Shown: piece by piece, positions 19,707-61,137 of the stretch
Layout: the number at the start of each line of letters is the position of its first letter
How positions within the stretch are numbered: position 1 is the stretch's first letter
Source of the DNA: Mesostigma viride
Lineage: Eukaryota; Streptophyta; Mesostigmatophyceae; Mesostigmatales; Mesostigmataceae
Length of the DNA: 64,000 bases
Assembly (NCBI GenBank): GCA_009746045.1
Contig: RPFO01001075.1
Location: forward strand, 434,501 to 498,500
Reading direction: 5' to 3'
Notes under the pieces: model-generated
Told to the model about the DNA's origin: nothing
Database searches by the model: none
The model's input: the letters and a program-made list of their open reading frames with translations, nothing else
Made by a program: the position numbers and the translations under genes

Positions 19707-19768
19707 GGTGGTCCCACGCGGAATGGGGTAGATTTTTGCAAGAAAAAAACGCTAATTTCAATCGTCCG
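19707..19768 (+). repeat. Left terminal inverted repeat of the giant transposon
   Basis: Starts GGTGGTCCCACGCGGAATGG and ends CAATCGTCCG. The first 23 bases are identical to the inverted right end; the remainder matches with a gap of about 10 bases and one further substitution. Subterminal copies of GCGCCGAAATT at about 19783 and 19839 could be transposase-binding repeats. Confidence 0.9.
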
Positions 19769-20153
19769 AAAACCGGACATTGCGCCGAAATTCTTGCCGA
19801 AAATTTGGCAGCCGAGCGAATTTTTCGCCGGACGGACTTTGCGCCGAAATTTTTTGTCTGCCGTGCTTCGAACTCAACCGACTCCTGCTGTTGCGTGCAC
19901 TTTGTCCGATGCCTGCAGGCCACGCACGAATTTTGCGACCGAAATATGACGACTAGACAAGTTTATCGACGACCTACATCGATCAATTGCCACTTTTGAA
20001 GTCCTTGGCTTGCTAGCAGCTTTTGATTATCAATGCCGGGAACAAAATTGCCGAAATTTTTTATTGAATCAGTACATATATGTGCACATGTCCGTAATTT
20101 TATCATTCTCAATTTTGACATTGTCGGAGTATTTGACAACTTAGGCATTGCGC
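19769..20153. other. Left subterminal region of the giant transposon, no gene
   Basis: Non-coding, with repeated GCGCCGAAATT and CCGGAC(G)GAC elements close to the TIR, then A+T-richer sequence. No coding frame could be supported. Confidence 0.6.
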
Positions 20154-20591
20154 CTAGAAAAAGGTGCCCCATCCGTCGATGTCAAAATCGCCGAAGGAGT
20201 ACACTCCCTGGTACTGGTCTCCCCTGTAGTTGGGAGGCTCGCCTGTATACATTTTGGGTTTCCACTTGGCCCCGCCGTTCTCCGCAGCAGCCAGGAACTC
20301 CTGCTGGGCCTCAGCCCTCAGGCGCATCATTGATACATTGGGAGAGCCCGGAATTTCCGTGCTCTCCACCACCACTCTCGCCTGATTGTCAGGCACGCAT
20401 TGGTAAGCAGGGTTCAAATCTGAATCGGGTGGCACCAGATCGATCATGCCATTGCCGAACGCAATGACACCTGCACCCCACTGTGCAGAAGGTCCGAGCA
20501 ACTCTACATCAATTCTGATGTTTGCAGCGTGCTCATTTTTGTCGACCATCACATAGGTATGCTGAGAACCGAAAATATTGCTCTGCTCCAT
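20154..20591 (-). CDS. Small uncharacterised protein near the left end of the giant transposon
   Basis: ATG at 20591 gives a 145-residue frame starting MEQSNIFGSQHTYVMVDKNE and ending GDFDIDGWGTFF. An upstream in-frame extension to 20756 exists but contains a hydrophobic segment (VLPAVITLARLAVGV) that may be intronic. The protein is soluble-looking, with an acidic Trp/Phe-rich C-terminus. It could be a separate small gene or a terminal exon of the transposase gene, which ends 0.5 kb upstream on the same strand. No family is recognised. Confidence 0.45.
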   Translation of the reverse strand: MEQSNIFGSQHTYVMVDKNEHAANIRIDVELLGPSAQWGAGVIAFGNGMIDLVPPDSDLNPAYQCVPDNQARVVVESTEIPGSPNVSMMRLRAEAQQEFLAAAENGGAKWKPKMYTGEPPNYRGDQYQGVYSFGDFDIDGWGTFF

Positions 20592-21118
20592 TTGTGACAG
20601 TGTTAAATTTCGGCAAGCTTGGCTGCTTGCAATCGACAGGAAATTGGTGACCCCGACAGCCAGACGCGCAAGGGTTATCACTGCAGGTAGAACCCAAAAT
20701 TTGTCGATAAGGAGTAATGGAAGGGCACGACCACCAGTCACTACTATTCGCTTCACCGGACACCTTTTTCAGCTTCCGGTTAAAATTCAGCAAGAGCAGC
20801 GGCGATTAGATACTAAATATTGCGTTATTGGTTCGTACCGTACCCAGACAAATATTGTACTAGTGACGCAATTGTACTAGGCGGAATGATCATTATTTAA
20901 ATATACAGCATAAAATTATGTTGCAGTAAAAAATAACTGTTAATTGAAGGCCGCAAAAAATTATCAACTACCCTTAAACTTGACCACAGAAAGATCTCGA
21001 AAAATATATACAATATATGCGGCCACCTTTTTACACCCTACTGAAGCCCCACTCTAAAGATATAATACGAGCCGAAACTAGGGCGTCGTCTACCCGCAGC
21101 GAGACCCCAATTTCTTGT
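20592..21118. other. A+T-rich spacer, no gene
   Basis: Lies between the small ORF and the transposase stop codon on the minus strand, and probably contains the transposase 3' UTR. AT-rich runs such as AAAAATATATACAATATATG occur near 21000. No repeat of other parts of the window was seen. Confidence 0.5.
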
Positions 21119-21864
21119 TTAAGTCGGTGCCGGCCCCTCCGGGGCTTCATCCTTGATCACAAGCGCAGTAAGCCACTTGTCGAGCTCCTTGCTCATCCTG
21201 ATGTCGGCACACATTCCGTCGCTGCGCACGCGTGCTTCTAGCCGGAGAGCCGGAGCGACGCAGAGATAGCAATTCACAAGCTCGGGCTGGCGTGACGGTG
21301 GCCAATCCTCAACGTTGAGCGTGAAATGCAGGGGGTCATGCTTATCCCGCTTCCAAATCCGAACGGGAAGAATGCCATTCCCGGCGAGGAACAGCTCCTT
21401 CTCCCGTCCGTTCCGGCCCTCGACCCACCTCTCGAAGTTTTTGTCTAACACGATCGGCCCGGCTTCGCTTACAACCTCAGCCAACCAGAACGGGTGGATG
21501 GGATCGTGATCCGTGTCCTTGTCCGATGGAACTGCCACATAGTCGTGGAGTCTCATCTGCCGGCCCATCGCCTCCCGCTTGTCCTTCAGCTGCTCCCCCG
21601 CGTCACCATGCGAACCGGAGGGTTGGGCTGGCTCGGTGGCAGCAAACGGACAGTTTTCATCGAGCTTCCTGCATCATTGAACTCGATGATAAACGACCAC
21701 TCGCTTAGACATCCCTCAAACCGCCCAGCCAAACAGGGCGGACAGTAGCAGGAATAGCGCCTAATCATCAAAAGGCCAGGGTCGGACTTGTCCAGTCGCC
21801 ACCAATGCGCCTTCTTGATGCCAGGCACCTCCTCCACCTCCGCGCGTCGGCCGGACTCGACGTC
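21119..21864 (-). pseudogene. Transposase gene, C-terminal exon: Cys motif and SH3-like tail
   Basis: The exon begins after TAACTATTTGATGACAG at 21865 and reads DVESGRRAEVEEVPGIKKAH, then LLMIRRYSCYCPPCL, a His/Arg-Tyr-Ser-Cys block that in related animal proteins follows the catalytic domain. After a frame change near 21600 it continues LHDYVAVPSDKD and HPFWLAEVVSEAGPIV, a beta-rich segment resembling SH3/BAH-like readers, and stops at 21119. The role inferred from position is DNA or chromatin binding by the transposase. The frame change probably inactivates it, unless it is a very short intron. Confidence 0.6.
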
Positions 21865-21935
21865 CTGTCATCAAATAGTTAGGACAAAAAGAATACCGTT
21901 CAAGTTAGCAAAATTGACCAAAAATCAATAAAACA

Positions 21936-22275
21936 GGGTATAGCTGCAGAGAGACCCCTTACAAAAAAAAAATTAACGACAAGACATACAGTCATCAAAA
22001 TTCGACACAGGGTATAGCTGCAGAGAGACCCCATTCGAATCATAATAACAACGTACGACAAGATATCAAGTGATCGAAATTCGACACAGGGTATAGCTGC
22101 AGAGAGACCCCATTCGAATCATAATAACAACGTACGACAAGATATCAAGTGATCGAAATTCGACACAGGGTATAGCTGCAGAGAGACCCCTTCATACCGA
22201 TAGAACAAGCGAAATTTCATACCTAAAAGAAAAGCAACCCATTGACAGTATATAGGGTCTCTCTGCAGAGATACC
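21936..22275. repeat. Palindrome cluster in the last transposase intron (5 copies)
   Basis: Copies at 21936, 22010, 22090 and 22168 read GGGTATAGCTGCAGAGAGAC followed by CCC; one at 22255 reads GGGTCTCTCTGCAGAGATAC. Three of them lie in a tandem duplication of a unit of about 79 bp (22010-22190). The whole cluster is within introns of the leftward gene. The 22255 copy contains the predicted splice donor. Confidence 0.85.
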
Positions 22276-22858
22276 TTTATTGGGTTTGAACTTTTGTAGA
22301 ACATCGGCAGTTGACGTCTTAAAACCTGAAATAACACAAAATTCCGTACTGGGGGTAAAAGGAAGAAGTGGCGAGTGACGTTCTCGGCCCGCGCGCGGGC
22401 CGACTCCCTGCTCGATGTCTTGCCGCCCTGCCAGTTCTGGTTCAAGTAGGCGACTAGCTGGTGGGTCTCAAGTATGTGCTGGTTTTCGGGAATCCTCTGC
22501 ATTTCCCTCAAGACGCACTTGCACTTCGCTCCTTGACCATCCACCTCCCCCTTCCCATGCTGCTCCCCCATGTAGTGGAACTCAAAGGCCTGCAGGTCGG
22601 GATCCCCCATGAGCAGACCGTTAATCTGGTTAATCACGTACCTGGACTTAAACTGCACCGCGCAGTTGTCCGAGCACATGTACAGGTTTCGCACCTCTAC
22701 CCCTACTTCTACCCGCAGGTTTTCCAGAATCTTGCGAAGAGCGTATACGAGTGCGCGCTCGCCCCGCTTGATACTGGAATCCCCCAGGAAAAAGAAGACG
22801 CGCTTTTCCAGCTCGCCGTTGAGCCGATAACGCACGATCATGGGCATCAGGATGTGGC
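22275..22858 (-). pseudogene. Transposase gene, catalytic exon 3' half
   Basis: Continues the exon broken by Copia-1: after the insertion the frame resumes exactly (KRSHILMPMIVRYRLN). It then reads VFFFLGDSSIKRGERALVYA, the catalytic-type LYMCSDNCAVQFKSR and FHYMGEQHGKGEVDGQGAKC. The D in CSDNC and the HGKGxxDGxG block match a family of uncharacterised eukaryotic proteins with an RNase-H-like fold that I know from animal genomes, where SDG..QFKNR and HGKGPCDG are typical. The DGxG motif also recalls KDZ transposases. The exon ends at a donor within a palindrome copy at 22274; a mini-intron near 22320-22345 is possible. Confidence 0.75.
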
Positions 22859-23300
22859 AGTTAGCCTCTAGTCGTGGACATAGGCTAAGTACCAGATAGC
22901 AATGTGCTATCTGGGGTTTCGCACGTGTAGGCTCGGTCAGAAGTCCCGGCTATATGTGATTCGGCAGGCTAGACTATTCGATAGCCGAGTCCTGGTGACG
23001 GACGCCAGTACCCAAGTAGGATTGGCGGTACGGCGTCGCCAGTACCCACTCGGGACTGACATTGAGGTGTCGGATGTTGGACTAAGGTCCTGAGAGTCTA
23101 GCAGTGGCGTCGCGCCACTCAGGCTGCACCACAGAGCCCAACGGCCACTGTCGGCCGCTCCAGACGTGGCGGCCAGGCAGAGCGTTGCTTGTCGACAATG
23201 CTAAATGCCCTTGTGCACGTTGGGTGCGGGGCTTGTGATTTATTGTAATAAACACATGCGTTAGGCCATTGAGCATTGAGAGGTCCATCGTTTATTAACT
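22859..23300 (+). repeat. Copia-1 5' LTR
   Basis: 442 bp with AGTTA...TAACT inverted termini instead of the usual TG...CA. TTGTAATAAACACATG near 23245 is a possible polyadenylation signal. TGAATT follows the LTR, also found after the Copia-2 LTR, and may be part of the primer-binding site. Confidence 0.93.
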
Positions 23301-23331
23301 TGAATTAAAGTCGTTTACCATAGACAAAATC

Positions 23332-26300
23332 ATGGGAGATCCTATTATGCCAGGCCTGAAATTCAAAAAGAAGCGGATAGATGATGCTGGCTGGCAGACG
23401 GTGCCAACAGTAGAGGAGAAGGCTGCGGCCAAGAAAATTAAAAAAGCAAGAAGGGCGCAGGCGGAGCAGGAACAGCTAGTGGCTAGGCAGCTAGCGACAG
23501 CGATGGCTCAGCAAAGCGTCAAGGCAGCCGCCCAAGAGCGGCAGCTGGCAGCCCTGCAAAAACAGGTAACCTCCTTGGCCGAACAGGCCGAAAAATCTGT
23601 TTTTTCTAGCCCAGCTAGCTCGCAAAAATCCGTAAGCAGTATGCGGTCCCCCAGCCCTCAGGCAAGCCCCGCTGACCTCCCCGCTAAGGCACCGTCCCAA
23701 CCTCCTCAGGAGGAGGGCGGAATAGCCAAAAGCGGTGGAGAACAAGCGGGGGTGCCGATCGTCCCCTCATCCGCTCAGAAAGCGGGGGGGTACGAGAGGA
23801 AGCTGAAGAGGGACGCATACATGTTCAAAATGCGGACCAAGAAGGTCCCAGGACCCGTCATCGGCAGCATTCAGCTGTCTGATGACGAGGTCACCCTCTC
23901 CCCAGGGGTTTCTGATGGGGAGATTGAGATGAATCCACTCAATCAGGCGGTCGAACAGGCCGCCGCCCAGTTTGTAGAGGCACGCCGTCTTGCACAGCAA
24001 GAGCGGGACCGCAAAAAGACAGCGGCCCGCAACATGACTGCTGAAAAGCAGCTGGCTGCCATGCAAGCTGGAGAGGTGCTCCATGAGCGCCTCTTCAATG
24101 AGCTGGTTGTTGCACAGGGGGACGAGGGGGTCACGCTAACAGCGGACCAACTCAATTCCCTCCTGTTGCAGCTGACCAAGCTGCAGGAGAAGATGCAGGC
24201 AACAGAAACGCCTGCACTCCCTGCACATACCCTCCCCACCCCTGGCACTGATTTGAGCCAAAGGGTGGTTGGAGGGGCCGTGTCACCAAGGGTGCTGCAG
24301 GGCAAGAGCCAGGGCACTGTCCCCAGCTCCCCCAGCAAACCCCCAAGTGACCCGGATGCCCAGGAGCTCCACCGCCGCAAGGTGGTGGAGAATAAACTCC
24401 TAGAGGCCATGATAGCCCGTGAGGGCGGCCTGGCAGCCCAAGCAGCAGCGCTGCAGCAGCTTGGCCAGGCCAAGGGTTTTCCTACCAGCAGTGGAGTAAG
24501 GCAAGGGGAACAAGACCCTGCGCCTGCAGCTGGAACACCACCAGCCACTGCACTAGCACAGCAAGCTGGAACACAACCACCTTCTGCGGAGGCCCAGCAG
24601 ACTGCACCCACACCAGGGCAGTCAGATAAGAGCAAGGCGGTGGCAAAAGGGACCCCAGTGGACCCAACCCCACCCACCCTTAAGGGGGACGTCCAAGAGC
24701 TGCTTGCCATACTCACGGCACAGCTCAAGACCATGGCCACCAACCCCATGGACGACCTGTCGCGCACCCAGCTGGATGGCCTCCTGGCCAGTATCTCCCA
24801 GCTGGAAAGGGGCAGGGCGAACATGGAGGAGGCTGATCTTCAACAAGCAGTCAAGACTTTCTTGGCTGAAAAGAAGGACCCGGTCAAAGGTACGTTTAAC
24901 CCAAAACAAAAAGAATCTAAAATAGAAATCCCTGGCTTACCTGAGGGTTACACCCAGGAACAGGCCAAGGAATTTTTGTTTAGCCTGAACTACTGTTTTG
25001 AGTCTCTGAATGTCCAGAACTGGTTCAGTGCCTTGCGTGCATCCACCACCATCCATAGGTCAGCCCCAGCCATTAAAACCTTGGTCCAGATTTACCAAGA
25101 AAAGGCTGGGACACCTAACCTAGCAATTGCATTGTGGCCAGCCTTCATGGATGAGCTTAAGCACTTGCTGGTGGATAGGACACAGTTTGAATCCATCCGT
25201 GGTTTCAACTGGCTTAATGCTTACCAGGTCAACAAGCAAGACTATGCCACTGATTGCAAGAATTATAGGTTGGCTGTAGAAAAGGACCCTGATCTCAGGG
25301 GTCTGCCTGCTAGCTACCTGCTGTATTCATGGTTGTCAAATGCTAACCTGGACAAAGCTGTGTACGCCACTGTGGTTGCAGGTCTCAAACCTCTGTGGAA
25401 CGATTTCCGGGCGGGGATGAACCATATCCAAGACTGCCTGACTCCCCTGGCTATAGGTGCTCCGTCTGCAACCCCAACCCCCAAGGTCCAACAGACCCAA
25501 GGGAAGGGGCAAGGAAAAAAGCGCCAGCTAGGGGGGCAGCAGGGCGGCCAGTCCAAGAAGGCCAAGGGCAACCAGCCCCAAGGCCAGCCGGGACAGCCTG
25601 CTCAGCTCAAGCCAAACCAGTGGAGGCGGCCCACCCCCCCCACACCTGCCCCACCCACCCCTGCACCCACTGCTCAGCCCCCCCATGCAGGTCCCAAGAA
25701 CAAGTGCACCCGGTGTGGCACCAAGGGACACCAGCGGGCGGACTGCAAGTGGAACCCCGCAGTAGGCGACGTGGACCTCTGCTTCGGTTGCAAGCACCCC
25801 CGCCATCTGCCCCCCGGCACGTGGTGCGACCGGCAGGACAAGGCTCCAAAAGGATGTACGTCCTCACAGCACGCCTATGTGGATTTATATGATCTCATTA
25901 TCATTGGGGATAAAGACAAGGGACTGCTAGATTTTGAGGCAGCTCAGAAAATCTCCTCCACGTATAATGTGATACTGCCCTACCTCAAAGCTCTTACCCC
26001 AGCTGCTGTTGACACAGTAGACTTAAGGGAACTAGCAACCCAGCTCCACATAGCCATGGGTCATGAGGTGGTGGCAGAAAAGATTGCCAGAAGAGCAGGA
26101 GGTTCACGACTCAGGAATGCTGTCAGGTTGGCTAGAAAACACTGCCAGCAATGTCAGTTCCATGGCCCAAAACCTCCCAAATGGCATGTCGCAACACCAC
26201 CCACCCAAAGGGGAATAATTGTGGGTGATGTCGTGCATATCGATGGTGAACAATATCTGATCCTAAAAGACACATGGTCCAGATTCACTGTCATGGAACC

Positions 26301-26718
26301 CCTACCTGGAATGGCTAAAGAGCAACTGCGTGCAGCACTTGTGATAGCATTGCCCAGATTCTACCCAGTTGACACTATACTGCTTGATCAACAGTTTAGC
26401 TGTCTGGCTGAGTGTGAAGGATGGGATGCTAATATTGAGATTGCTGGATTGCAAGATCATGAAGGGCAGGGTGTCATTGAAAGAACCATCAGGTCAGTCA
26501 AAACTTTAGTGGCGAAATCCACTGACCTGAAAGCCACATCTGGAAGCTATGCTGACAGAGCACTGTGGTGCAGTGAAATCTGTGCTACACTTAACCTTAG
26601 ACCTGTGTTGCATGCACCATGGGGGGAAATCCTTCCCATTGGCTTACAGGCAGGTGTGTACCCTCCAGAGGTATTAGCTCTGTATAACACAGTAAGGCTA
26701 AAGTGGCTGATAAGCTAG
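23332..26718 (+). CDS. gag-pol: Copia-1 gag and integrase core
   Basis: 1128 codons from ATG 23332. Residues 1-500 are Ala/Gln/Lys-rich, largely helical and low-complexity. A gag core follows (FNPKQKESKIEIPGLPEGY, FNWLNAYQVNKQDYAT). A CX2CX4HX4C knuckle, CTRCGTKGHQRADC, lies near 791-804, followed by a second Cys/His cluster (CFGCKHPRHLPPGTWC). The integrase HHCC module (LHIAMGHEVV ... HCQQCQF) is near 904-941. The core has VGDVVHIDGEQYLILKDTW, ILLDQQFSC and GQGVIERTIRSVK, the D,D,E residues of a Copia integrase in altered contexts. The frame closes after YNTVRLKWLIS because of an indel; Copia-2 is continuous at this point. Confidence 0.9.
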   Translation: MGDPIMPGLKFKKKRIDDAGWQTVPTVEEKAAAKKIKKARRAQAEQEQLVARQLATAMAQQSVKAAAQERQLAALQKQVTSLAEQAEKSVFSSPASSQKSVSSMRSPSPQASPADLPAKAPSQPPQEEGGIAKSGGEQAGVPIVPSSAQKAGGYERKLKRDAYMFKMRTKKVPGPVIGSIQLSDDEVTLSPGVSDGEIEMNPLNQAVEQAAAQFVEARRLAQQERDRKKTAARNMTAEKQLAAMQAGEVLHERLFNELVVAQGDEGVTLTADQLNSLLLQLTKLQEKMQATETPALPAHTLPTPGTDLSQRVVGGAVSPRVLQGKSQGTVPSSPSKPPSDPDAQELHRRKVVENKLLEAMIAREGGLAAQAAALQQLGQAKGFPTSSGVRQGEQDPAPAAGTPPATALAQQAGTQPPSAEAQQTAPTPGQSDKSKAVAKGTPVDPTPPTLKGDVQELLAILTAQLKTMATNPMDDLSRTQLDGLLASISQLERGRANMEEADLQQAVKTFLAEKKDPVKGTFNPKQKESKIEIPGLPEGYTQEQAKEFLFSLNYCFESLNVQNWFSALRASTTIHRSAPAIKTLVQIYQEKAGTPNLAIALWPAFMDELKHLLVDRTQFESIRGFNWLNAYQVNKQDYATDCKNYRLAVEKDPDLRGLPASYLLYSWLSNANLDKAVYATVVAGLKPLWNDFRAGMNHIQDCLTPLAIGAPSATPTPKVQQTQGKGQGKKRQLGGQQGGQSKKAKGNQPQGQPGQPAQLKPNQWRRPTPPTPAPPTPAPTAQPPHAGPKNKCTRCGTKGHQRADCKWNPAVGDVDLCFGCKHPRHLPPGTWCDRQDKAPKGCTSSQHAYVDLYDLIIIGDKDKGLLDFEAAQKISSTYNVILPYLKALTPAAVDTVDLRELATQLHIAMGHEVVAEKIARRAGGSRLRNAVRLARKHCQQCQFHGPKPPKWHVATPPTQRGIIVGDVVHIDGEQYLILKDTWSRFTVMEPLPGMAKEQLRAALVIALPRFYPVDTILLDQQFSCLAECEGWDANIEIAGLQDHEGQGVIERTIRSVKTLVAKSTDLKATSGSYADRALWCSEICATLNLRPVLHAPWGEILPIGLQAGVYPPEVLALYNTVRLKWLIS

Positions 26719-29354
26719 CTGAAAAGGACATAACACACCCCAGAACAGTATTCCAACTGGGTGAACAAGTCCTATATTTCAAAGAAACCAAACATGGCAA
26801 GACAGGCATGTGGTATGGTCCGTGCACTGTTCTAAGAATGACCAAAAAAGGAAAAAATATGGATATTCGAAGTTTGGAAACAGGGAGAAAACACAGGGTG
26901 AGCAGTCATAGAGTTAAGAAGTATTTCCCTCCTTTGGCAGACGTGCCAGGGGAAGAGTCCTTGAACATGGATTCCCTCCTTAACTCTGGTGAGCAAGCAG
27001 AACCACCCAGCATTCCAACACCAGGAGCTGATGATGGCACTACCACACCCTCTGTCATTCCTCCACCCCTCAGTGAGGTACGTGTCACCCCACAACCTGG
27101 TGTAAGTCCCTCTGGGCAGAGTTCAACCAGGCATGAGGTACCAGAGCAAAACAAAGGCAATCCAGCTGAGTTCAAATCCAAGCTAGAAAAAGCCCTGGCA
27201 GCTCTGCATAAGGCTCACAAGAGCAAGGCTAAACAAGCCTCAGGTTTGGCCAAGGTCTCTGCTGTGTGCTCCGATTATAGCCAGGAATCCTGCATCCTAG
27301 CTGTGGACACTCAGGCACAGGTCAGTGTGATCAGTGCACAAGCCATTCCTGGTCTGCAACTTGCACCCTCACCATGGACACAGGTGCAAGATTTTTCAGG
27401 CAAAACAACCTTAGATGTGTTGGGTCAAGTAATGATCCCCATACTTGGCATCCAGACACCTTTCCAGGTAGTGGAAGGGTACATGGGCAATGCTTTGTTG
27501 GGAGAACCCTTTATCTCTTACCCAGGTGTCACCATCACTGCTAGCCAGCTGCGTGTGACTGGGGTAGGAGCCATTCCCTTGGATCACTACAAGATTCCAT
27601 TGTCCCAACTGGTTCATGGATTAGATGCCTATATCAAGGCCATTAACATCAAATATGGGCCAGGTGAAATCCCTGACCTAGAGAAAAAGGTGCACAATCA
27701 AAGGCCACACCCGCAGTCCTTTGGGGTTGGAAAGTGGGACTTAGCCATGCACTCTCCTCACAACTATGATGCTCTAATCCAACAATGCAAAACACAAAAA
27801 GGGTTTCAAAAATGGATCCAAGCCATTAGGCACCAAGCCCGCGAAGAGTGGGTGCTGCCAAACCCTAAGCATCCTGACTATAAGCCACCTGTCACTCCTG
27901 TCTGGGAAATTCCAGAAGGTGCCAAAAAGTTGAGACTCAAGTTTGTGCTAAAACACAAGGCACAGCCAGTAGGCTCACCTATATATCATGCTAGGCCATG
28001 TGTGACAGAATTAAAAGGCATGTCAAAACTGTCCAAGGGTGAACTCTACACTCCTGGGCTGCAGCAAACATCCCTCAGGATACTGCTCTCTGTCTTCCTC
28101 CACCATCTCAATGCTGGCCAAGATTATGCCTGCAAAGCTACTGATATCAAAAGGGCTTTCCTTAGAGGGGACCCTGATAAAGCGCAAGATGTGTGGAAGG
28201 GTCAGGTCTATGTGGTTCCCACCCCTGCTGCATGGGCACATGATATTGATGAGCCATATCTACTCCTAAATCTAGGGGTGGAAGGTTTGCAAAGTGCTCC
28301 CACTATCTTCAGAAAATCAGCAGAAGAGGTGTTCAAGAAACTTAATGCCACTTATGATGATCTGGACCCTTGTCTCTTTGCTGTGCCCACACCCTCTGGC
28401 TTGCTCCTGTTTGTGTGGCATGGTGATGACCAACTGATTTGTGGACCAAGAGCTGAAGTTGACAAGTTCATTCAGCAGGTTCAGCAGTCATATGAGATTG
28501 GAAAGCAGACAGAGCTGGGGCCAGAACCCCTACAGTTCTGTGGCATAATGCTAGCACTGGAAGAGCAACAGGAACAGTGGGTGTGTACTCTATCCCCGCC
28601 TGCCCAGTACTTAGAAGAATGCCTAGAGCTGCTTGATATTCCGTGCATTCCTGCTCACATGTGTGCTACTGTCAAAGGAAAATTAGGGTGGCTGAGTGCT
28701 ATCTGTGCACCTCATCTGGCAGTGGTCAGCAGGATTGATGACACAGTATTACAAACCATGAAACCTAAGGATCTCCAGAAGCTACTAAAGGCTGGACCTT
28801 CCCTTGTCATTCATCCACTCAACCTCATGGAAGATATTCACATTAACTGTCTGATGGACAGCTCCATGGAGAGTAGGGTAATAACAAAAATGGATGCCAG
28901 GGAGGCTGGGGTGTTCTTCCTTACCAACAAGGGAGACTATATGTCCATGGTGTCGTGGTACAGCAGATTGCATCGCAGAAAAGCTGTTGGCAGTAACTCT
29001 GCTGAGTGCCGTGCTGTGGTGTCTGCTGTGCAGCATGCTCGATCCCTTCAGCACATACTAACCTGGTTGCAAACTCAGGCTGGCAGCAAGGCTGATGTGC
29101 ATGCTCACTTACACACTGACAGTCAGTCAGTCATTAGTTTCCTTAACAAGAAATCTGTGACTGCTGCTGTGCATACTGATCTGGACTGGGTGATTTTGAA
29201 ACAGGAAACAAGCTATTTTTCCAGCTGGCAGCATCTGCCAGACGAGGAGAACCTGGCTGACGCATTGACCAAGATTCCGTCATTAGCAGCAACCCAGTAC
29301 CAGCTTCTGTGTGATGCAATGAATCCCTATCTGTCTAGTCAGACAAATGGATGA
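26703..29354 (+). CDS. pol: Copia-1 integrase C-terminus, protease-like domain, RT and RNase H
   Basis: 883 codons. N-terminal GPY/F-like module (MWYGPCTVLRMTKKG). At about residues 197-275 there is an aspartic-protease-like domain: LAVDTQAQVSVIS, then VLGQVMIPILGIQ and NALLGEPFI. The usual D-T-G reads D-T-Q here. RT follows: CKATDIKRAFLRGD (near 478) and LFVWHGDDQLIC (near 569), where the normal YVDD is HGDD. RNase H: CLMDSSMES, NSAECRAVVSA, LHTDSQSVISF and NLADALTK. Protease after integrase is not the textbook Copia order (gag-PR-IN-RT-RH). It encodes the replication enzymes; a single upstream frameshift is the only lesion seen. Confidence 0.9.
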   Translation: MADKLAEKDITHPRTVFQLGEQVLYFKETKHGKTGMWYGPCTVLRMTKKGKNMDIRSLETGRKHRVSSHRVKKYFPPLADVPGEESLNMDSLLNSGEQAEPPSIPTPGADDGTTTPSVIPPPLSEVRVTPQPGVSPSGQSSTRHEVPEQNKGNPAEFKSKLEKALAALHKAHKSKAKQASGLAKVSAVCSDYSQESCILAVDTQAQVSVISAQAIPGLQLAPSPWTQVQDFSGKTTLDVLGQVMIPILGIQTPFQVVEGYMGNALLGEPFISYPGVTITASQLRVTGVGAIPLDHYKIPLSQLVHGLDAYIKAINIKYGPGEIPDLEKKVHNQRPHPQSFGVGKWDLAMHSPHNYDALIQQCKTQKGFQKWIQAIRHQAREEWVLPNPKHPDYKPPVTPVWEIPEGAKKLRLKFVLKHKAQPVGSPIYHARPCVTELKGMSKLSKGELYTPGLQQTSLRILLSVFLHHLNAGQDYACKATDIKRAFLRGDPDKAQDVWKGQVYVVPTPAAWAHDIDEPYLLLNLGVEGLQSAPTIFRKSAEEVFKKLNATYDDLDPCLFAVPTPSGLLLFVWHGDDQLICGPRAEVDKFIQQVQQSYEIGKQTELGPEPLQFCGIMLALEEQQEQWVCTLSPPAQYLEECLELLDIPCIPAHMCATVKGKLGWLSAICAPHLAVVSRIDDTVLQTMKPKDLQKLLKAGPSLVIHPLNLMEDIHINCLMDSSMESRVITKMDAREAGVFFLTNKGDYMSMVSWYSRLHRRKAVGSNSAECRAVVSAVQHARSLQHILTWLQTQAGSKADVHAHLHTDSQSVISFLNKKSVTAAVHTDLDWVILKQETSYFSSWQHLPDEENLADALTKIPSLAATQYQLLCDAMNPYLSSQTNG

Positions 29355-50166: not shown

Positions 50167-50171
50167 TCTAT

Positions 50172-52572: not shown

Positions 52573-52698
52573 GTACGTTCATCCGCCGCGAGTTCGTGTG
52601 ATTTTTTTCGTGCTGAGGGGTATCTCCGCAGAGAGACGATGGTGCAACAATCGAACTGAGGTCAAGTCCCTTCTTGTTCGTTTTTTTTTGTCATGCAG

Positions 52699-53241
52699 GC
52701 GGGGGCTGTCGCTGGGGGTACTGCGGGGGGGAAGGCGGCGAAGCCCGCATTGACTGAGCATGAAAGGGAAAAGCTGGATTCCCGCAAGAAGGTTGCGAAG
52801 GATCATATTATTGCTGTTGGCCTGATCATGCTTAAGTCTCCGCCCGATGGCGTCGATTCGGAGGGACCTGCGGGGTCCGAGTTTCGCAAGTACCTGACAC
52901 GACTTGAGGCGGAAGTCGATGCCGATTTCGATACGGAGGTGTTGGGTGCCGCTACCTTTAAGAGTGAATTGGCATATGAATTTGTAAATCTGGTGAAGTC
53001 GAAAGCCACCAAGAATTTCAAGTGGCAGCCTAAGGAGTACTCAGAGGCAAAGGTTGACAAGATCGAGAAATTCATGAAGGCTGATTTTCGTCGTCGGGCC
53101 GCTGAGGGAAAAAGGGCGCTGAATGCGGTGGCAAAGGCCAACAGTAAGAAGAACGCGGAGGCGAAGGCGGCGGAGAAGGAGGCGAAGAAGGCGGAGAAGG
53201 AGAAGGCTAAGGAGGCCAAGAAGCAGCAGAAAACTGGACAG
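52699..53241 (+). CDS. Rightward giant gene, exon 6
   Basis: 181 residues between TTTGTCATGCAG and GTACGATTG, also a multiple of three. A Gly/Ala-rich start is followed by a helical domain (LTEHEREKLDSRKKVAKDHI, FRKYLTRLEAEVDADFDTEV, EFVNLVKSKATKNFKWQPKE) and a Lys/Ala/Glu tail (AEKEAKKAEKEKAKEAKK). Such tails often bind nucleic acid non-specifically. The following intron holds a degenerate palindrome at 53266-53283. Confidence 0.55.
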
Positions 53242-53431
53242 GTACGATTGTTGTGAAAATTTAGACCTCTCGCTGCGGGTAGACGCTGACTGGCTGCGGG
53301 ACTTGGTGTTTAGTGTCAGTAAGGTATTATTCCAACAGAACTTTGTTCGTCCCTGAACAGGATGTCGTGGTCGGCCTAAATATTACTGACTTGAGCAAAT
53401 CCTGCGGTCCTTTTCGATTTTTTACTTCAGG

Positions 53432-54597
53432 ATGACGGGGGGGACGAAGACGCCACGGTGGAGAAGAAGTTACCTGGTCATGACGCCGTGTTCGCGCTGG
53501 TGAAGGATATGCTCAAGTACTGCTCGAGTAGGCGGATGGCGGACGTCGATGACCTGCCAAACTGGCCCGAGTTCTCCCCCTTTCTTGAGCTGCTCCGGTC
53601 ACTCAACAAGCTTTTTAAGGAGGGGGTGCTCACGAGCAGTGGGAACCCGGACACCGACCCTATCATTGAAAGCTGGAAGCCTTCGAAAAAGGTCGACTCG
53701 AACAAGGAGGTCAGGGACCAGAACATCCGGAAGGCCAATACTCTCAGGGAAACGCGTTGGATTCGGCCGGCCGATTTTAAGCAGACCGGATGTTTCAGTA
53801 TGCGGATCCAGACGGTCAACGCGCTTATTTTGCCAGAGGCTTTGAGGCAGCGGCGTTTAAACCTTGAAACCATTAAGGAGAACGGCCGCATTCTCCTCAA
53901 TGCGCGGGACAACGCCTTGCACTTCAAGGTTGTTGTCCCGGTCTGGCAGTTCCCTTTCCAGGCGCTTGCCGAATCTCAACCTGACCTGTTCGACAAGCAA
54001 ATCTTGTGCATGCCGGATTTCGTCAAGTGGCTGAAGCATTCACCACGGCGCCAAGATTGACGCGGAGGATGTGGGGTCCAGGTACTTCCGGCCCCTTTCG
54101 GATACTGAAGTCGACGTGTGGCTTAACACGGAGTCCACCACCTCTTTCCTCGCGAGAGGACTTGAGTGGCGTACCTACGCCAGGTGGACGAGGTGGAAGC
54201 AGTTTTGCCTCAGGAGATCGAGGGCAGTCGGCAAGTTTTCAACCTGCTGTGCAATACTGCGATGAAGTCCTACGATCCGAAATTTTTTGAGGAACGGGTA
54301 CCGGTACCGTATCTGGTTCTCCGGTACGCGGTGGTGGATGGGAACCACTACTTTAAGGGGTTAAAGTCGTTTCTCAGGGGGCCGGATGGCGGGTGGGGAG
54401 AGGTTCGGGCAATGATGTGCGAGGGTGGGGCGGAGTCCAATTTCGCAAATACTCCTAAGGAGGCGGAGCACGCCTTCCAGGACCTGTTGCGGAAATTCCG
54501 TGGTGGTTACATGGGTACGAACGTCATTCTTCTCAAGGGTGGCGACCTGCTCCCGTCGTGGAGTGAGCTGCGAAATCTACCTAAGGCAAAAGAAGAT
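53432..54597 (+). pseudogene. Rightward giant gene, exon 7
   Basis: Starts DDGGDEDATVEKKLPGHDAV and has a clear globular part (DLPNWPEFSPFLELLRSLNK, RWIRPADFKQTGCFSMRIQT, FKVVVPVWQFPFQALAESQP). Frame changes near 54045 and 54175 are followed by QVFNLLCNTAMKSYDPKFFE, VPVPYLVLRYAVVDGNHYFK and GGYMGTNVILLKGGDLLPSW. The VVDGNH segment faintly recalls the DGxHR motif of ParB/sulfiredoxin-fold proteins, but the match is too short to name the domain. Donor GTAAGC at 54598. Confidence 0.5.
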
Positions 54598-54617
54598 GTA
54601 AGCTATCTATTTTGGCA

Positions 54618-54796
54618 GGGTCTAGCTGCGGGTAGACCCTCGGAATTTTCGTGGTTGTTTTTTGTGTGCGCTTCAAGTTTTTTGCGAGGGTCTCGCTGCA
54701 GCTAGACCCTCTCCTTTTTTTTGTTGGAATTTTCGTTGCGTATTGTCGGCCGTTTCTTTTTCGAATTTTGTTAGGGTCTATCCGCAGCTATACCCC
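54618..54796. repeat. Palindrome cluster in intron 7 (3 copies)
   Basis: Copies at 54618, 54688 and 54774. The first is followed by CCTCGGAATTTT, as is the copy at 36881, so a longer unit than the palindrome has been duplicated between the two places. Confidence 0.85.
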
Positions 54797-54852
54797 TCGC
54801 CTTTTATGACTGAGTTTTGTCGTTGCTCGCTCGATGTTAATTGATGTCGCAG

Positions 54853-56948
54853 GCGGTGCTGACCGGCAAGCTGGAGAAGCTGTTCGACATCGCCAAGGGG
54901 GCGAATTCGGAGGACTTAGCCGTGGCGGATCGTACGCTGGGCCAGGCGTTGCTTGACGTGTGGAACTACAACAAGCTATATCTATACGGCAAAGTCACGC
55001 GTGGGAAGGGCCACTATATTGCGGATGGCCACTATACCAATCTGCTCACGTACATCCTCCCGGCTATGCGGCAAGCGGGGGGAAGGGAAGGGAATGTGGA
55101 GCCGGCAGCGGTGGATGTACACGAGGAGGAAGCAGAAGGAAAGAAAAAGCCGGCCCACAGCATTGCTTCAGTGCATTCCGCTTACAGTCGCACGCTGGCC
55201 AACACGTTTCTCCGTCTGACACAGGAGCAGACTGATGATCCTGCCTCAACGAAACCCGCGCCTGAGGAGGTGATGATGCAAAGGTGCAAATTCGCGAATG
55301 CAGAGGGGGAGAAGAAAGGCCAGAAGGTCTCTTGGACTTCTTTCAGGAACTTGGCCAGCCTTCCTATGATGGACGCCGTGATCGATTGCATCATGAGCTG
55401 CCAGGTTGGACCGGAAAAGCTCACCAAGTTGGTGGAGATCGCCAAGGATGTGCTGGAGTGCCTGCGGCTGACCATTTGCGCCAGATTCAAGGAGGATGTG
55501 ACGCTGGAAGCGCGATGCAAGGACGCAAATGGCAAGGAGTTTGTGGCGTCTCATATTTTCGAACTCGTCTTCAATCTCCATCCTCTCCTCGGCCGGTCGG
55601 CAGGAGGAGATTGTGGCCAGATACCGGGAATTTTGGGATGTGGCCGTCATCATAACGAGGAACATCGCCTACCTTCTTAAAGCCAAAAAACACGCCGCAC
55701 ATCTGAGGATTCCGAGAAAGGATCTCAGTAATGGCAAGATCGACTTTCAGGAGATTCTGCTAAAAGAGAGCGAGGACAAGACGGTGGGTTTGGCACTTTT
55801 GGCTCCGGAAGCGTTCAGGAAGTACGCTCCAAAAGTTGGATTACTCGAAGGGGGGGTGAAGGAGGCGGCGATGAAGGGGCCGGTGAAGGGGCTGGAGAAG
55901 GGATCGAAGGGGAAGGGGAAGGGGAAGGAGACGGAGGCGAAGGAGGAGGAGGAGTGGGACGTGAAGTATGAGTGGCAGAGTGTGGACTGGGGCCGTCGCC
56001 GGGTCTGGTTTTGCTGTCAGGAACTAGACGGTGATGATGATGACAAGTCGCTCGTCAAGCAGGTGGCAGGCGAGGTTGCCTCAGCTTCAGCCCGCCCCTT
56101 TCCCTTGGGCAGGTCCCTTCCGTGCCTGAGCCTGCTGAACTTGGCGAACATTTGGGGTGATAAGTGGAGTAACTTTCAGAGAGGGTGGTGGGCGTTCGGT
56201 CCTTGCCCGAATCGTACATTCCCCAACCGGGCGGGATCTACGATCATGTGCTGAAGGCTTGCGCCCACGAGTTTTTCTCCAGGTTCGAACCGATGGTGAT
56301 CGTGTTTGGTACCGAGACGGAGATTAAGGGGTTTCAAGAGATAGTGGAAAGGATCGGGAAAGGGAGTGAATTGTGGGAGCGGCTTGAACAGGGGGAAGGT
56401 GATGGGGGGCCTAGGCTCGGAAGGGCGAAGAAGCGAAAAGCTTCCCACGAAGCTGGGGGATTGTCCGCCGTGGTGGAGAGGGATGACCAACAGTTGTTGG
56501 AGGGAGGGGATGGAGGGGATGGAGGTCCGGCAGGAGGGTCTAACCGCGGAGAGACCCCCGTCGAGGTCAGAACGCAGCAGGCCGAACAGATGACGGGGCC
56601 TGAAGGTGATTCGGATCCGCCTGCGGCGAAGAAGCCCGCTTCTCAAGTGACTCGACGGGCAGTCGTGTCACTTGTTGAGGATGATGGAGGTGGGCCTTCC
56701 AAGCCTGCCGCGCCGCAGCCCGTTTTTCAGGTTCCGAAGAAGCAGCTTCGGGTTCCCTTGCCGACTCTGCCCACCCCGGCGCCTCTGCCCAGTTCTCAGT
56801 ACCGAAGAAGCAGCTTCGGGTTCCCCCGCGACTCTGCCATTTCTCAGGTACCGAAGAAGCAGCTTCGTAAGCAACTTGTGGCAGTGGCTGATTCGGACGA
56901 CGATGCTGAGGAGGAGGAGGAGGAGGACGACGATGCTGAGGAGGAGGA

Positions 56949-56979
<31 letters not shown>

Positions 56980-57358
56980 GAGCAGCACGTTGCTACCAAG
57001 AAATCCGCCAAGGGTGGGAAGGCTGCGGAGCACGTTGCTTCCAAGAAATCGGCCAAGGTGGGGAAGCTCCCAAGCCTGCCCTGCCTCAGAAACGGCGTCG
57101 AAAAGCAGTTGTGCTTTCAGATTCGGACGATGAGGAGGAGAAGGAGGAGGAGGATGGCGGCGGAGAGGAGGAGGACGGGGGAAAGGAGCGCGTTGCTTCC
57201 AAGAAGTTACCCAAGACCGCGAAGACTGCCAAGGTTGCCGAGCCCGCCAAACCCGCCCCGGCGCCTGCCCCCCACCCCCAGACGGGGTCTACCTGCGAGC
57301 ATCTGAGGTCGAAGGAAAAGGCCAAAAAGGGTAAGAAAAAATCTGCGAGTGAATTCTG
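54853..57358 (+). pseudogene. Rightward giant gene, exon 8 (large, acidic/basic C-terminal region)
   Basis: Begins AVLTGKLEKLFDIAKGANSE and YNKLYLYGKVTRGKGHYIAD, continuing SLPMMDAVIDCIMSCQVGPE. Frame changes near 55600, 56180 and 57080 separate later parts: EIVARYREFWDVAVIITRNI, then PQPGGIYDHVLKACAHEFFS and MVIVFGTETEIKGFQEIVER. The last 350 residues are disordered, with KKQLR repeats (VPKKQLR three times), Glu/Asp runs and Lys/Ala/Pro tracts like histone-chaperone tails. A palindrome copy falls inside the open frame at 56536-56557. The first frame change could be a 40-50 base intron. The exon ends KSASEFW at a GTATG donor, where the gag-only LTR element inserted. Confidence 0.5.
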
Positions 57359-57363
57359 GTATG

Positions 57364-57857
57364 TGTCAGAATTCCAGACTGGTGGCAAGGCTTAAAGATC
57401 GAAATGTATATTGCTTTACTGATTTATATTAATTGACTTTGCACCTCAGACCAAACCGGTGCATTGTGCCGCCGCCATATAAGCTGTTGGTCGGCAAGCA
57501 CTTGACACACGTTGACACAATGTGGAGTCGATTGACCCACGGTTGACACAAGACTTGACGCATTAATAACGACCACAAACACACATGGATAACATGGGGC
57601 GCCAAGGCGCCGACACACGGTACAAATATCGAATACACGGAAATTAATGCTGTCGACTAATTGTCCCGCCGGCTGAACTGCCGACCGGAACACTATATCC
57701 GTTGCATTCCTTGGCCAAATACGGCGGGACCAAGTTCTATAGAAAGGTTACAACTAGGCTGATATGATAGTAAGGTTGCATAATTAAGTTCCGGCATACC
57801 CGAAACTGGCCACACTCATTAAGAAGACTGTCAGGCATATTGGGGCACATCCTGACA
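57364..57857 (-). repeat. Gag-only element LTR, left copy (3' LTR)
   Basis: 494 bp. Differs from the right copy at one position (CTCATTAAG against CTCAATAAG near the end). Begins five bases after a splice donor of the giant gene. Confidence 0.92.
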
Positions 57858-58499
57858 CCCCCCTTGCATACAATGTGCCTGTTCCCCCCTTGCTCAGAGA
57901 GACCTATAGCTAGTGAGGGTATAGCCGGGTACACTGCCCTGGCACCCCCCCTTACACGGCTATCTGGGTGGTACTGAGAGGAGACTTGATGACTGTAGCC
58001 CCCAGGTGTCCCTGGGAGTGCGCCACAGTGGCTGTAGCGTGGAGAATGCCGGTGACCTTAGAAAACCTCCTGTAGCCCCCAGGTGTCCCTGGGAGTGCGC
58101 CACAGAAGAAAACAAAAAACACTGGTGAACTGGTTGTCGTTGCTGCTGTTGCTGGGCAATGCTGGAAAATGCTGGAATCTGTGAAAGACACCGGTGGCCC
58201 CCAGGTGTCCCTGGGAGTGCGCCACAGGAGGAAATAACACAGGTTGACTGGTTGATGCTGGTACTGCAGTACTGGTCACTGCTGGCTGCTGGCATGGAGA
58301 CCTGCCTCCTGTCACGTCTGGCAGGGCGGGCTACTAGCCGCTAGCGATGCAGGAGGGCCAGGGGACGGGTTGGGGGGGCTGGCTGCTGTCGCCTGCTGCA
58401 GTGCAGGTTGAAAAGCTCCAGGGCCCACGTCTGGTGCTAGCTGGGCCCAGCTGGCTGCTACCCCTTGTTCCCGGTCCCGGGGGGAGCTGGATAAGACGT
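57858..58499 (-). repeat. Interior 3' region of the gag-only element with a triplicated segment
   Basis: No gene. CCCCCAGGTGTCCCTGGGAG followed by TGCGCCACAG occurs three times (about 57999, 58076 and 58199). The same GGCCCTGGGAGTGCGCCA word occurs at about 46235 in the non-coding LTR element, which links the two families. Confidence 0.8.
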
Positions 58500-59381
58500 T
58501 TAGAAGCAGAAACCGGGGGGGAGGTCCGGGGCCTCCTGGGAGGGCGCCGGGGTGTCGGTGGTGTGGTGGACGCCGGTGTTGCCGCGAGTGTTGCGCAGGT
58601 GGGGATACTTCCACCAGCAGGTCGGCTCCTGGTGGGAGGTGCGACCGCAGTGGGTGCAGCTGGGCCGCTGGGCCCCGCCATTGTGACCGCCACGCCCCCT
58701 GCCACGGCCGGTTCCACGGCCACCGCGTCCAGAGTGGGAGGTATGATACACCCCGGTGGCCTCCGTGGAATCTTTGTTACCGTGAACGAGGTCCCATGCC
58801 TTAAGAAGTGCCGCCTTAGTTTCCTGTAGGGTGATACCGTCCCCGAGGTTTAATTGTGCAAGAGACGGAAGCAAATCCTCGGTCACGCCGGCGAGCAGAT
58901 TCTCGGCCAGATCCTCGGGTGCCATTTTAGCGCCGGTGGCAATCAGGTCGTTATAAGTTAATTCCCCGTCGGTTATATATTGCCGCATTGTGACGCCGGG
59001 TTCCAGTTTCATTCGATTGAGCTTGCGGCGTAGTGCTCGCCGGTTGCTCATCTGCAGTTTGAGATGCTCATATTCTTCACAGATGCGATGATATGCCACG
59101 CTGCCAGTTTTCTGAGTAACACTGTTTGCCACTTTGAGTGCCGGTCCAATGAGGCACTGACAAAGGGCAGCAAAAAGAATCAGGTCGCGTTCCTCGTTGA
59201 CCTCGGTGCCAAGCAGGACAGACAGCATCCCGAATGCTGTCACTACGGCCAGAAAAGGAATCTTCGTGTTATCCCACTTTACTGGGTCGAGGCCGTCGAA
59301 CTGTGTAATATTTTTGCAGGCCTGTAAGATGTTGAGATCTTTCGTCGCTTTCGTAGCTGCTGCTGTCGCGGCTGCGGACAT
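58500..59381 (-). CDS. gag: Copia-type Gag with zinc knuckle, alone in its element
   Basis: 293 residues starting MSAAATAAATKATKDLNILQ. FDGLDPVKWDNTKIPFLAVV and LRRKLNRMKLEPGVTMRQYI are the regions that in Copia gag (UBN2/RVT-gag type) form the capsid fold; LTYNDLIATGAKMAPEDLAE follows. An Arg/Gly-rich stretch leads to CTHCGRTSHQEPTC, a CX2CX4HX4C zinc knuckle. The frame is intact and the flanking LTRs are nearly identical, so the protein could be made and could package the RNA of this or related elements. Confidence 0.88.
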   Translation of the reverse strand: MSAAATAAATKATKDLNILQACKNITQFDGLDPVKWDNTKIPFLAVVTAFGMLSVLLGTEVNEERDLILFAALCQCLIGPALKVANSVTQKTGSVAYHRICEEYEHLKLQMSNRRALRRKLNRMKLEPGVTMRQYITDGELTYNDLIATGAKMAPEDLAENLLAGVTEDLLPSLAQLNLGDGITLQETKAALLKAWDLVHGNKDSTEATGVYHTSHSGRGGRGTGRGRGRGGHNGGAQRPSCTHCGRTSHQEPTCWWKYPHLRNTRGNTGVHHTTDTPAPSQEAPDLPPGFCF

Positions 59382-59684
59382 GATTGTCTCGGCAAGGTTA
59401 AAATCTGGTCACAACCGAGAAAACCGGAGACGCTCAATCCGTAATGGTAAAGATTAATATTAATATGCGACGATGGTTGAGAACAGCGAATACTAGATAG
59501 AGACGATCGTCCAAATACTGGAGTTCTTGAATTTCGATACAGGGAAGCCCTTCAAGAATATGCACGACTGGCATAAAGTGCCGTCGGATTCAGGGAGTCA
59601 ATTTGCCGATAATTTGGCCAGGTTGACGGACCAAATTGTCGGATCAGTTTGTAGCAATTTACGAGGCCACCCCGACCGATACCA
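59382..59684 (-). other. Leader of the gag-only element
   Basis: Untranslated region between the 5' LTR (right copy) and gag on the minus strand, including the primer-binding-like TGGTATCGG next to the LTR. No gene. Confidence 0.7.
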
Positions 59685-60178
59685 TGTCAGAATTCCAGAC
59701 TGGTGGCAAGGCTTAAAGATCGAAATGTATATTGCTTTACTGATTTATATTAATTGACTTTGCACCTCAGACCAAACCGGTGCATTGTGCCGCCGCCATA
59801 TAAGCTGTTGGTCGGCAAGCACTTGACACACGTTGACACAATGTGGAGTCGATTGACCCACGGTTGACACAAGACTTGACGCATTAATAACGACCACAAA
59901 CACACATGGATAACATGGGGCGCCAAGGCGCCGACACACGGTACAAATATCGAATACACGGAAATTAATGCTGTCGACTAATTGTCCCGCCGGCTGAACT
60001 GCCGACCGGAACACTATATCCGTTGCATTCCTTGGCCAAATACGGCGGGACCAAGTTCTATAGAAAGGTTACAACTAGGCTGATATGATAGTAAGGTTGC
60101 ATAATTAAGTTCCGGCATACCCGAAACTGGCCACACTCAATAAGAAGACTGTCAGGCATATTGGGGCACATCCTGACA
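59685..60178 (-). repeat. Gag-only element LTR, right copy (5' LTR)
   Basis: 494 bp with TGTCAG...CTGACA termini, followed by the GTATG target duplication. Confidence 0.92.
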
Positions 60179-60273
60179 GTATGTAGAGTGTTTTGATTTT
60201 TTACGGTTGGCAGTCCGATTTCTACTAACTCGATTTTAGTCATGCGTTGATGGCATGATCGGTTTGCTCGCAG

Positions 60274-60844
60274 GTAATGAGGATGTGCATGGAGCAGTTA
60301 CTTCGCTTGGCTAATGTGGCGGTGGGCTTCGGACCAGCGGCTGTACATGCTGACACTTCCGGACGGGAGGAGCCTAAGGGGGCGGAAGACAGTCAGGCGG
60401 GCGATGAGGATGATGACAAGCCCACGTTGGAAATGAGACTTATGGACGGGGAAATGGGGTTCGGAGCACCAGAGGCCTTTTGGTGTGATGGGTGGACTGC
60501 AGCCATTATGCAAGCAGGGAACAAGGATACGGCTACGCCAATGTATGCCAAGCTAGAAGACGTCATGCTTTATGGGCAGGTGTCTGGATACGACACCAAG
60601 TGGAGGGACGTCGCATTTAAGTTTTTCGCTGAGGGGGAGAAGGGAGGGAAGTTGATTGAAGAACAAGTTGTGGTGGATGCCGCTGGACTACGCGATGAAG
60701 GTGGTAAAGCTGACGGATGGCAAGAGCTGGAAGGATGTGGAAGTCTGGGCGCCTGCAAAGGAGATCGATAAGAAGAGGAGGAACTCGAAAACGGAACAGC
60801 AGATCGCGGAAGCGAAATTACGGAAGAGGCCCTCGAAAGTGTGA
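60274..60844 (+). pseudogene. Rightward giant gene, last exon
   Basis: An intron with TACTAACTCG branch-point-like sequence and GTTTGCTCGCAG ends at 60273. The exon reads MRMCMEQLLRLANVAVGFGP, LEMRLMDGEMGFGAPEAFWC and MYAKLEDVMLYGQVSGYDTK. Near 60650 the better coding frame shifts to NKLWWMPLDYAMKVVKLTDG and KSWKDVEVWAPAKEIDKKRR, stopping at 60844. The tail is Lys/Arg-rich. By position it is the C-terminus of the giant gene, joined across the gag-only element. Function unrecognised. Confidence 0.5.
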
Positions 60845-61066
60845 GGGAAAGTTAGCACTTGGACATGCGCTGGCAATGCTCGTCCTATGGTTAATACAAA
60901 GGTTAGGATGATGTCGAGTCTCTCCACGTAAAATTTACATGAATTACTAACTTTCAAGCCTCTCGATGTGGAATGTACGCTCAAATTGACATGAATTAAG
61001 CATTATGACACCAAATTAGCTCGAAAATACGCGATCGGACGCCAAATTCGCGCGAAAAAAAGATAT
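60845..61066. other. Right subterminal region of the giant transposon
   Basis: No gene; likely 3' UTR of the rightward gene. Contains CGATCGGACGCCAAATTCG and TATCGGACGATTG, echoing the CCGGAC motifs near the left end. Confidence 0.6.
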
Positions 61067-61137
61067 CGGACGATTGAAACTAGCGTTTTTTTCTTGCAAA
61101 ATGCGCCAAAAATGACCCCATTCCGCGTGGGACCACC
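61067..61137 (-). repeat. Right terminal inverted repeat of the giant transposon
   Basis: Inverse reads GGTGGTCCCACGCGGAATGG then GGTCATTTTTGGCGCATTTT and ends CAATCGTCCG, matching the left end. Flanked outside by CGGCAG at 61138-61143. Confidence 0.9.

What the first reader, a model, noticed from the sequence alone, without database searches (positions are those of the whole stretch)
19707..61137. A giant TIR transposon with a 6-bp target duplication, hidden by 22 kb of later insertions
The two LINE fragments 41 kb apart end at matching inverted repeats (GGTGGTCCCACGCGGAATGG) flanked by CGGCAG on both sides. Deleting the interval plus one CGGCAG restores an unbroken LINE reading frame, which is strong independent evidence for the exact boundaries. 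After removing nested retroelements about 19 kb remains, with two divergent intron-bearing genes, an inverted satellite and a private palindrome family. A DNA transposon of this size with introns and a 2,000+ residue partner gene does not match a superfamily I can name. A 6-bp duplication is also used by Polintons, but the gene content here differs completely.
Basis: partly seen in the sequence, partly recalled or inferred. Interest (0 to 1): 0.95.

Follow-up and report, generated by a model that had tools for sequence, protein, structure and literature searches.

The report
Giant 19-kb algal cut-and-paste transposon family
A very large jumping gene, apparently of the green alga Mesostigma, is present in many almost identical copies; it carries its own enzyme, a second large gene and a private palindromic DNA signal that small derivatives also keep, which suggests a self-recognition system.

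Summary
24-bp inverted repeats at 19706-19729 and 61115-61138 bound a transposon of 41.4 kb here, about 19.1 kb without three LTR insertions. The host genome, apparently Mesostigma viride, holds 473 matching ends. Two LINE paralogs read base by base show the empty site exactly. The left gene encodes a ~1000-aa DDD-type transposase with a predicted RNase H fold, under purifying selection against a second family (dN/dS 0.26-0.29); no Pfam model reaches its cut-off. Right ends of 20 copies have a median identity of 99.7%. The 10.3-kb and 0.6-kb derivatives examined keep the ends and, in otherwise unrelated interiors, a private palindrome, GGGTCTNNCTGCAGNNAGACCC; the second family has a variant. 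I infer that an element-encoded protein binds it, as VANC does in VANDAL elements. It is a new giant DNA transposon, perhaps Sola-like; superfamily membership could not be tested.

The parts
19702..19705 (.). 4-bp target duplication GGCA, left
19706..19729 (+). left 24-bp TIR GGGTGGTCCCACGCGGAATGGGGT
61115..61138 (-). right 24-bp TIR
61139..61142 (.). 4-bp target duplication GGCA, right
19706..61138 (.). whole element, 41,433 bp with nested insertions, about 19.1 kb without (subtraction of the three intervals below)
21119..21833 (-). transposase gene, last predicted exon (Cys-rich C-terminal part)
   Evidence: model of copy C323 mapped to the window
22349..22858 (-). transposase catalytic exon, downstream part, cut by a nested copia
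30162..30435 (-). transposase catalytic exon, upstream part
30591..32020 (-). transposase large N-terminal exon (Cys cluster); the window copy has indels in exons 1-2
32467..32479 (-). transposase first predicted coding exon (MSRE)
22859..30161 (.). nested copia-type LTR element inside the catalytic exon
33986..36870 (.). 30-bp and 29-30-bp satellite arrays in inverted orientation between the two genes
37473..60844 (+). partner gene, about 13 predicted exons, about 2149 aa, acidic; no Pfam domain above cut-off in the exon-size frames scanned
37969..50166 (.). nested LTR elements (apparently one inside another's LTR) within a predicted exon of the partner gene
57365..60178 (.). nested LTR element with a copia-type gag only
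21936..22276 (.). five palindromes in a transposase intron
32175..32432 (.). four palindromes in the first transposase intron
36881..37344 (.). six palindromes upstream of the partner gene, several at 107-110 bp spacing
54618..54795 (.). three palindromes in a predicted partner-gene intron

Best explanation
This is a degraded copy of a young, high-copy giant DNA transposon, apparently of Mesostigma viride. Shown: ends, 4-bp duplication, empty site, near-identical copies, derivatives of three shorter sizes, a gene with conserved acidic blocks on a predicted RNase H fold, and a palindrome present in each size class examined. Inferred: the transposase cuts at the 24-bp TIRs and pastes into staggered 4-bp targets; this copy, with its catalytic exon split by a copia, can move only in trans. 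The confidence below is for this part. Inferred at about even odds: an element-encoded DNA-binding protein, most likely the ~2100-aa partner product, recognises the palindromes scattered in introns and intergenic DNA and either assembles the transposition complex or relieves host silencing, as VANC does in VANDAL elements.
For: Mobility: 473 ends; 24 of 27 end pairs with perfect 4-bp duplications and 5 of 5 independent small derivatives; empty sites; right ends of 20 full-type copies (19 independent) at a median 99.7% identity; transposase exons 1-2 of C557, C382 and C100 without a difference from C323. Transposase: AENY, SDNC and HGKGxVD blocks shared by P0001, P0002, P0004 and the stick-insect P0005 (hhalign 98.1%); b1-b2-b3-a-b4-a-b5-a topology, pTM 0.69, the first two Asp directly after b1 and b4, the third in the following helix; dN/dS 0.29 and 0.26 against the second family. 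Palindrome (up to 5 mismatches): 24 in the full copy, 22 in the 10.3-kb copy checked, 2 in each of two small derivatives checked, 0 in nested elements and window flanks; 2951 places genome-wide (up to 3 mismatches) against 0 for the control; 50 of the 54 exact ones listed lie inward of a listed TIR within 45 kb, against at most about 5% expected; 22 of 24 lie outside predicted exons, which by hand sum make up 48% of the copy; two loci of the second family have the variant GGTCGCGCTGCAGCGCGACC.
Confidence: 0.9

Rival explanations
1. The palindromes are bound by the transposase itself as internal sites for synapsis, bridging ends 20 kb apart; the partner protein does something else.
For: Derivatives of 0.6 kb, too short to encode a transposase, keep two palindromes together with the TIRs (L004); the palindrome of the second family differs as its transposase differs.
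Against: In the full copy the palindromes lie well inside the ends, many in tandem between the genes or in introns, which fits regulation better than synapsis.
Confidence: 0.3
2. The palindromes are selfish or structural repeats (cruciform-forming satellites) that ride along without a role.
For: Many occur in tandem arrays, as unequal crossing-over would make.
Against: They recur in interiors that blastn finds unrelated beyond the terminal regions, including a 0.6-kb derivative, and nearly all listed exact copies lie within this family.
Confidence: 0.2
3. A Polinton/Maverick or other virus-like element.
Against: The duplication is 4 bp; the frames scanned gave no Pfam polymerase, protease or capsid hit above cut-off outside the nested LTR elements; a two-pattern scan of viral contigs found no relative of the transposase.
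Confidence: 0.02
4. Misassembly joined two LINE fragments around foreign sequence.
For: The assembly seems to contain redundant haplotype contigs (C224 and C323 hold the same insertion).
Against: 24 of 27 end pairs carry their own perfect duplication, at different places but for that one allele pair.
Confidence: 0.01

Closest known systems
Sola1-1_Ec32 of Ectocarpus (PMC12477816, passages read)
   Same: [quoted passage not shown] giant algal elements there also carry nested TEs and are thought to move in trans.
   Different: Its accessory protein is 1104 aa with ParB-like and DNA methyltransferase domains; the partner here is about 2149 aa with no recognised domain. Transposase homology not tested.
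Sola2 elements of slime moulds (PMC3627910, passages read)
   Same: 4-bp target duplications; transposase of similar size (888 aa).
   Different: Their duplications are AT-rich (AWWT) and the elements encode Fanzor; here the targets show no obvious consensus, and no Pfam hit pointed to Fanzor.
VANDAL elements of Arabidopsis with VANC (PMC5735166, passages read)
   Same: Family-specific short motif, dense in introns and upstream non-coding DNA, partly as tandem repeats, differing between related families; bound by a non-transposase protein that often has tandem peptide repeats.
   Different: The VANC21 motif YAGTATTAY is shorter and not palindromic; no sequence relationship was tested.
Giant KDZ elements (PMC12477816, passages read)
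   Same: Giant algal elements; KDZ transposases can exceed 1300 aa, and a 31.7-kb KDZ element is reported to have moved in Chlamydomonas.
   Different: No Pfam model matched the transposase above cut-off; the 8-bp duplication of Zisupton is recalled, not read.
Uncharacterised protein LOC134529494 of the stick insect Bacillus rossius (P0005)
   Same: Shares DFAENY / SDNCSSQFKSKY / HGKGAVD blocks; E 3.2e-12, hhalign 98.1%.
   Different: 542 aa, 27% identity, animal; whether it lies in a transposon is unknown; sub-threshold match to DUF7869.

Membership tests
Cut-and-paste DDE/D transposon | TIRs with a fixed-length target duplication | tested here: met
   24 of 27 pairs with perfect 4-bp duplication, terminal G/C in 27 of 27; 5 of 5 independent small derivatives
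Cut-and-paste DDE/D transposon | RNase H-fold transposase with three acidic residues | tested here: met
   predicted only: topology and D74/D160/D203 in P0004; conserved blocks in 4 of 5 aligned proteins, the marginal P0006 departing
Sola | 4-bp target duplication | tested here: met
   the feature was read for Sola2 in PMC3627910
Sola | homology to a Sola transposase | not testable with these tools
   no Sola sequence was at hand; the two papers asked for by id are not held
Polinton/Maverick | 6-bp target duplication | tested here: not met
   6-mer match in 4 of 27 pairs, explained by 4 bp plus chance
piggyBac / Kolobok | TTAA target (recalled) | tested here: not met
   none of the 24 duplications is TTAA
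hAT / MULE / KDZ-Zisupton | duplication of about 8-10 bp (recalled) | tested here: not met
   with the corrected end, 8-bp match in 0 of 27 pairs
[quoted passage not shown]
   by eye in alignment A3: no CxxC between SDNC and HGKGxVD in P0001, P0002, P0004 or P0005; the third catalytic residue is a prediction
VANDAL-type anti-silencing (as mechanism, not membership) | family-specific motif clustered in non-coding DNA of the element | tested here: met
VANDAL-type anti-silencing (as mechanism, not membership) | element protein binds the motif and lowers methylation | not testable with these tools
   needs ChIP or gel shift and methylation data

The most novel reading that the evidence does not exclude
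A new superfamily-level lineage of DDD transposons with giant members in a basal streptophyte alga, in which a large element-encoded protein co-evolves with a private palindrome and uses it to find, assemble or de-repress every copy, including 0.6-kb derivatives.
Probability: 0.3. Interest if true: 0.8.

Novelty: new variant of a known kind. Interest (0 to 1): 0.62.

Why it matters
Near-identical copies of about 20 kb imply that such a large TIR element moved very recently in what appears to be an early-diverging streptophyte. The palindrome, kept by derivatives with otherwise unrelated interiors and altered in the sister family, makes a question testable: how does a transposon mark its own DNA as self? 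If the partner protein binds it, this would be an anti-silencing or synapsis system outside the VANDAL and En/Spm lineages, in a cultured alga.

Tried and rejected
A 6-bp duplication: rejected on 27 pairs. Polinton identity: rejected. Transposase by sequence in Pfam, NCBIfam and PDB: nothing above a cut-off or significant; a weak DUF7869 match (E 0.12 in P0002, 2e-4 in P0005, both below Pfam's cut-off); no paper in the library holds the term DUF7869. Relatives of the catalytic exon in viral contigs and GTDB genomes: none, but the scans rested on two and one short patterns. Structure of the whole protein: failed (pLDDT 31). Fold search of the catalytic model: Argonaute PIWI, RNase H, RuvC, terminase and retroviral integrase cores among unrelated proteins, low TM-scores, no particular transposase listed; an absent family is not excluded by this. 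Selection among copies: too few differences to be informative. Not obtained: ends and duplication of the second family, a partner gene in that family, counts of the size classes.

Papers: searches. For novelty I searched 'Mesostigma viride' + 'transposon' (21 papers, 20 listed) and 'Mesostigma' + 'terminal inverted repeat' (5 papers); by title none listed is about Mesostigma transposon families, and the passages seen of the two genome papers describe none, though their repeat tables and supplements were not seen. Passages only were read of PMC6947507, PMC7027972, PMC4455052, PMC3627910, PMC10294476, PMC5735166, PMC12477816, PMC12730594 and PMC6431247; none was read whole. Recalled and from no call: duplication lengths of hAT, MULE, KDZ, piggyBac and Kolobok, and the En/Spm comparison.
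Full report
Boundaries. In the host genome (439.9 Mb, 2243 contigs) it has 239 forward and 234 reverse matches with up to 2 mismatches, against 1 and 0 for the reversed control. From the roughly 100 places listed I fetched both ends of 26 pairs and added the window, 27 in all (26 independent, as C224 and C323 appear to be two haplotypes of one insertion); unpaired ends and one pair 58 kb apart were not examined. The outer base is G on the left and C on the right in 27 of 27. With that base in the repeat, the next 4 bases match in 24 of 27; the 6-mer reading matches in 4 of 27. The three misses are C100, C310 and C382, on contigs of 41, 34 and 32 kb; rearrangement or chimeric assembly may explain them.

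Empty site. The flanks joined without the element matched the 40 scored paralogs (of 2817 first-look candidates) at 98-99%, 39 over all 400 bases and one over 399. Two were read: no difference across the junction, and a 4-bp gap 110 bp away where the window's LINE has four extra bases. The right flank carries a reverse transcriptase domain (RVT_1, E 2.6e-14), so the host sequence is a LINE; the junction peptide itself had no Pfam or PDB match.

The family. Copies C446, C557, C382, C224/C323 and C100 (partial) align along the interior; the alignments listed pass the three nested LTR sites without those insertions (third site not covered in C100; C557 has a related LTR piece elsewhere), so these are later events of the window copy. 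Without them about 19.1 kb remains; copies C323 and C382 measure 19,535 and 20,976 bp. The copia at 22859-30161 splits the catalytic exon, and the LTR elements at 37969-50166 split a predicted exon of the partner gene. Shorter members share the ends: 10.3 kb (C36 and C80 fetched whole; about 140 bp at the left and pieces over the last 0.9 kb at the right are related at 82-95%, the rest is not), and 585-586 bp and 1340 bp (five independent ones among the first eight listed loci, 5 of 5 with a 4-bp duplication). Right ends of 20 full-type copies have a median pairwise identity of 99.7%; C47 (66%) and C310 (98%) stand apart. Transposase exons 1-2 of C557, C382 and C100 show no difference from C323; C446 has 6 non-synonymous differences and a gap; the window copy has 20 differences in 647 codons compared, plus indels. 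This points to very recent movement.

Host. Of the two homologues found first, both are EukProt models of Mesostigma viride (P0001 98%, P0002 65%), and the assembly resembles in size the published NIES-296 genome (442 Mb, 2363 scaffolds; PMC6947507, passages). The identification is an inference.

Partner gene. On the plus strand, about 13 predicted exons and 2149 aa, acidic, with repeated QVPKKQLR peptides; an open frame with SRSPPRKSP-like repeats overlaps a stretch that the model treats as intron. Exon-size frames gave no Pfam hit above cut-off. It was not searched against the large protein database, and a genome search for one of its exons did not complete.

Palindromes. GGGTCTCGCTGCAGCGAGACCC with up to 5 mismatches occurs 24 times in the 19.5-kb copy C323, 22 times in the 10.3-kb copy C36, twice in each of the two small derivatives checked (L002, L004), and never in the nested elements or window flanks; five block shuffles of each gave none. 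Genome-wide there are 2951 places with up to 3 mismatches against 0 for the control. Of the 54 exact ones in its capped list, 50 lie inward of a listed TIR within 45 kb (19 of 21 clusters); of the two other clusters, C1:685719 aligns to the element and C58:518004 was not checked. In C323, 22 of 24 lie outside predicted exons; of the other two, one straddles a predicted splice site. Two loci of the second family have three related sites in the 4.5 kb read, one a perfect 20-bp variant, GGTCGCGCTGCAGCGCGACC. VANC21 of Arabidopsis binds a family-specific motif dense in introns and upstream DNA of VANDAL21, arising by tandem repeats and changing with its protein (PMC5735166, passages). By analogy I propose that an element-encoded protein reads the palindrome; whether for silencing relief or for synapsis is open.

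Place among known elements. Giant algal DNA transposons are known: KDZ, EnSpm and Sola-1 of Ectocarpus, among them a 21.5-kb Sola1 with an opposite-strand accessory gene (PMC12477816, passages). Sola2 makes 4-bp duplications (PMC3627910, passages). A Sola-like position is my best guess, perhaps even odds, but no Sola transposase could be compared. I therefore call it a new variant of a known kind and keep a new superfamily as the novel case.

Noticed in passing
window 13311-16610 (+): Open frame of 1099 aa with a tyrosine-recombinase (Phage_integrase) match, E 6.7e-7; perhaps a DIRS- or Crypton-type element.
   Followed up: no
window 1980-4758 (+): Chromodomain-bearing gypsy-type LTR element: RNase H, integrase zinc-binding, integrase core and Chromo domains.
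   Followed up: no
L018-L019 (C36): The 10.3-kb derivative holds large minisatellites, with palindromes in two arrays at about 2.0-2.7 and 7.0-7.6 kb.
   Followed up: partly
L007/L008 (C1 near 7,893,000): A 586-bp derivative sits about 100 bp from the end of a full-type copy.
   Followed up: partly
L022-L023 and L024-L026: C224 and C323 appear to hold the same insertion on two haplotypes; the C224 stretch has 1107 N.
   Followed up: partly
L069-L080: A second high-copy family with a 65% identical transposase; none of its listed sites seems near a TIR listed (compared by eye, both lists capped), so its ends probably differ.
   Followed up: partly
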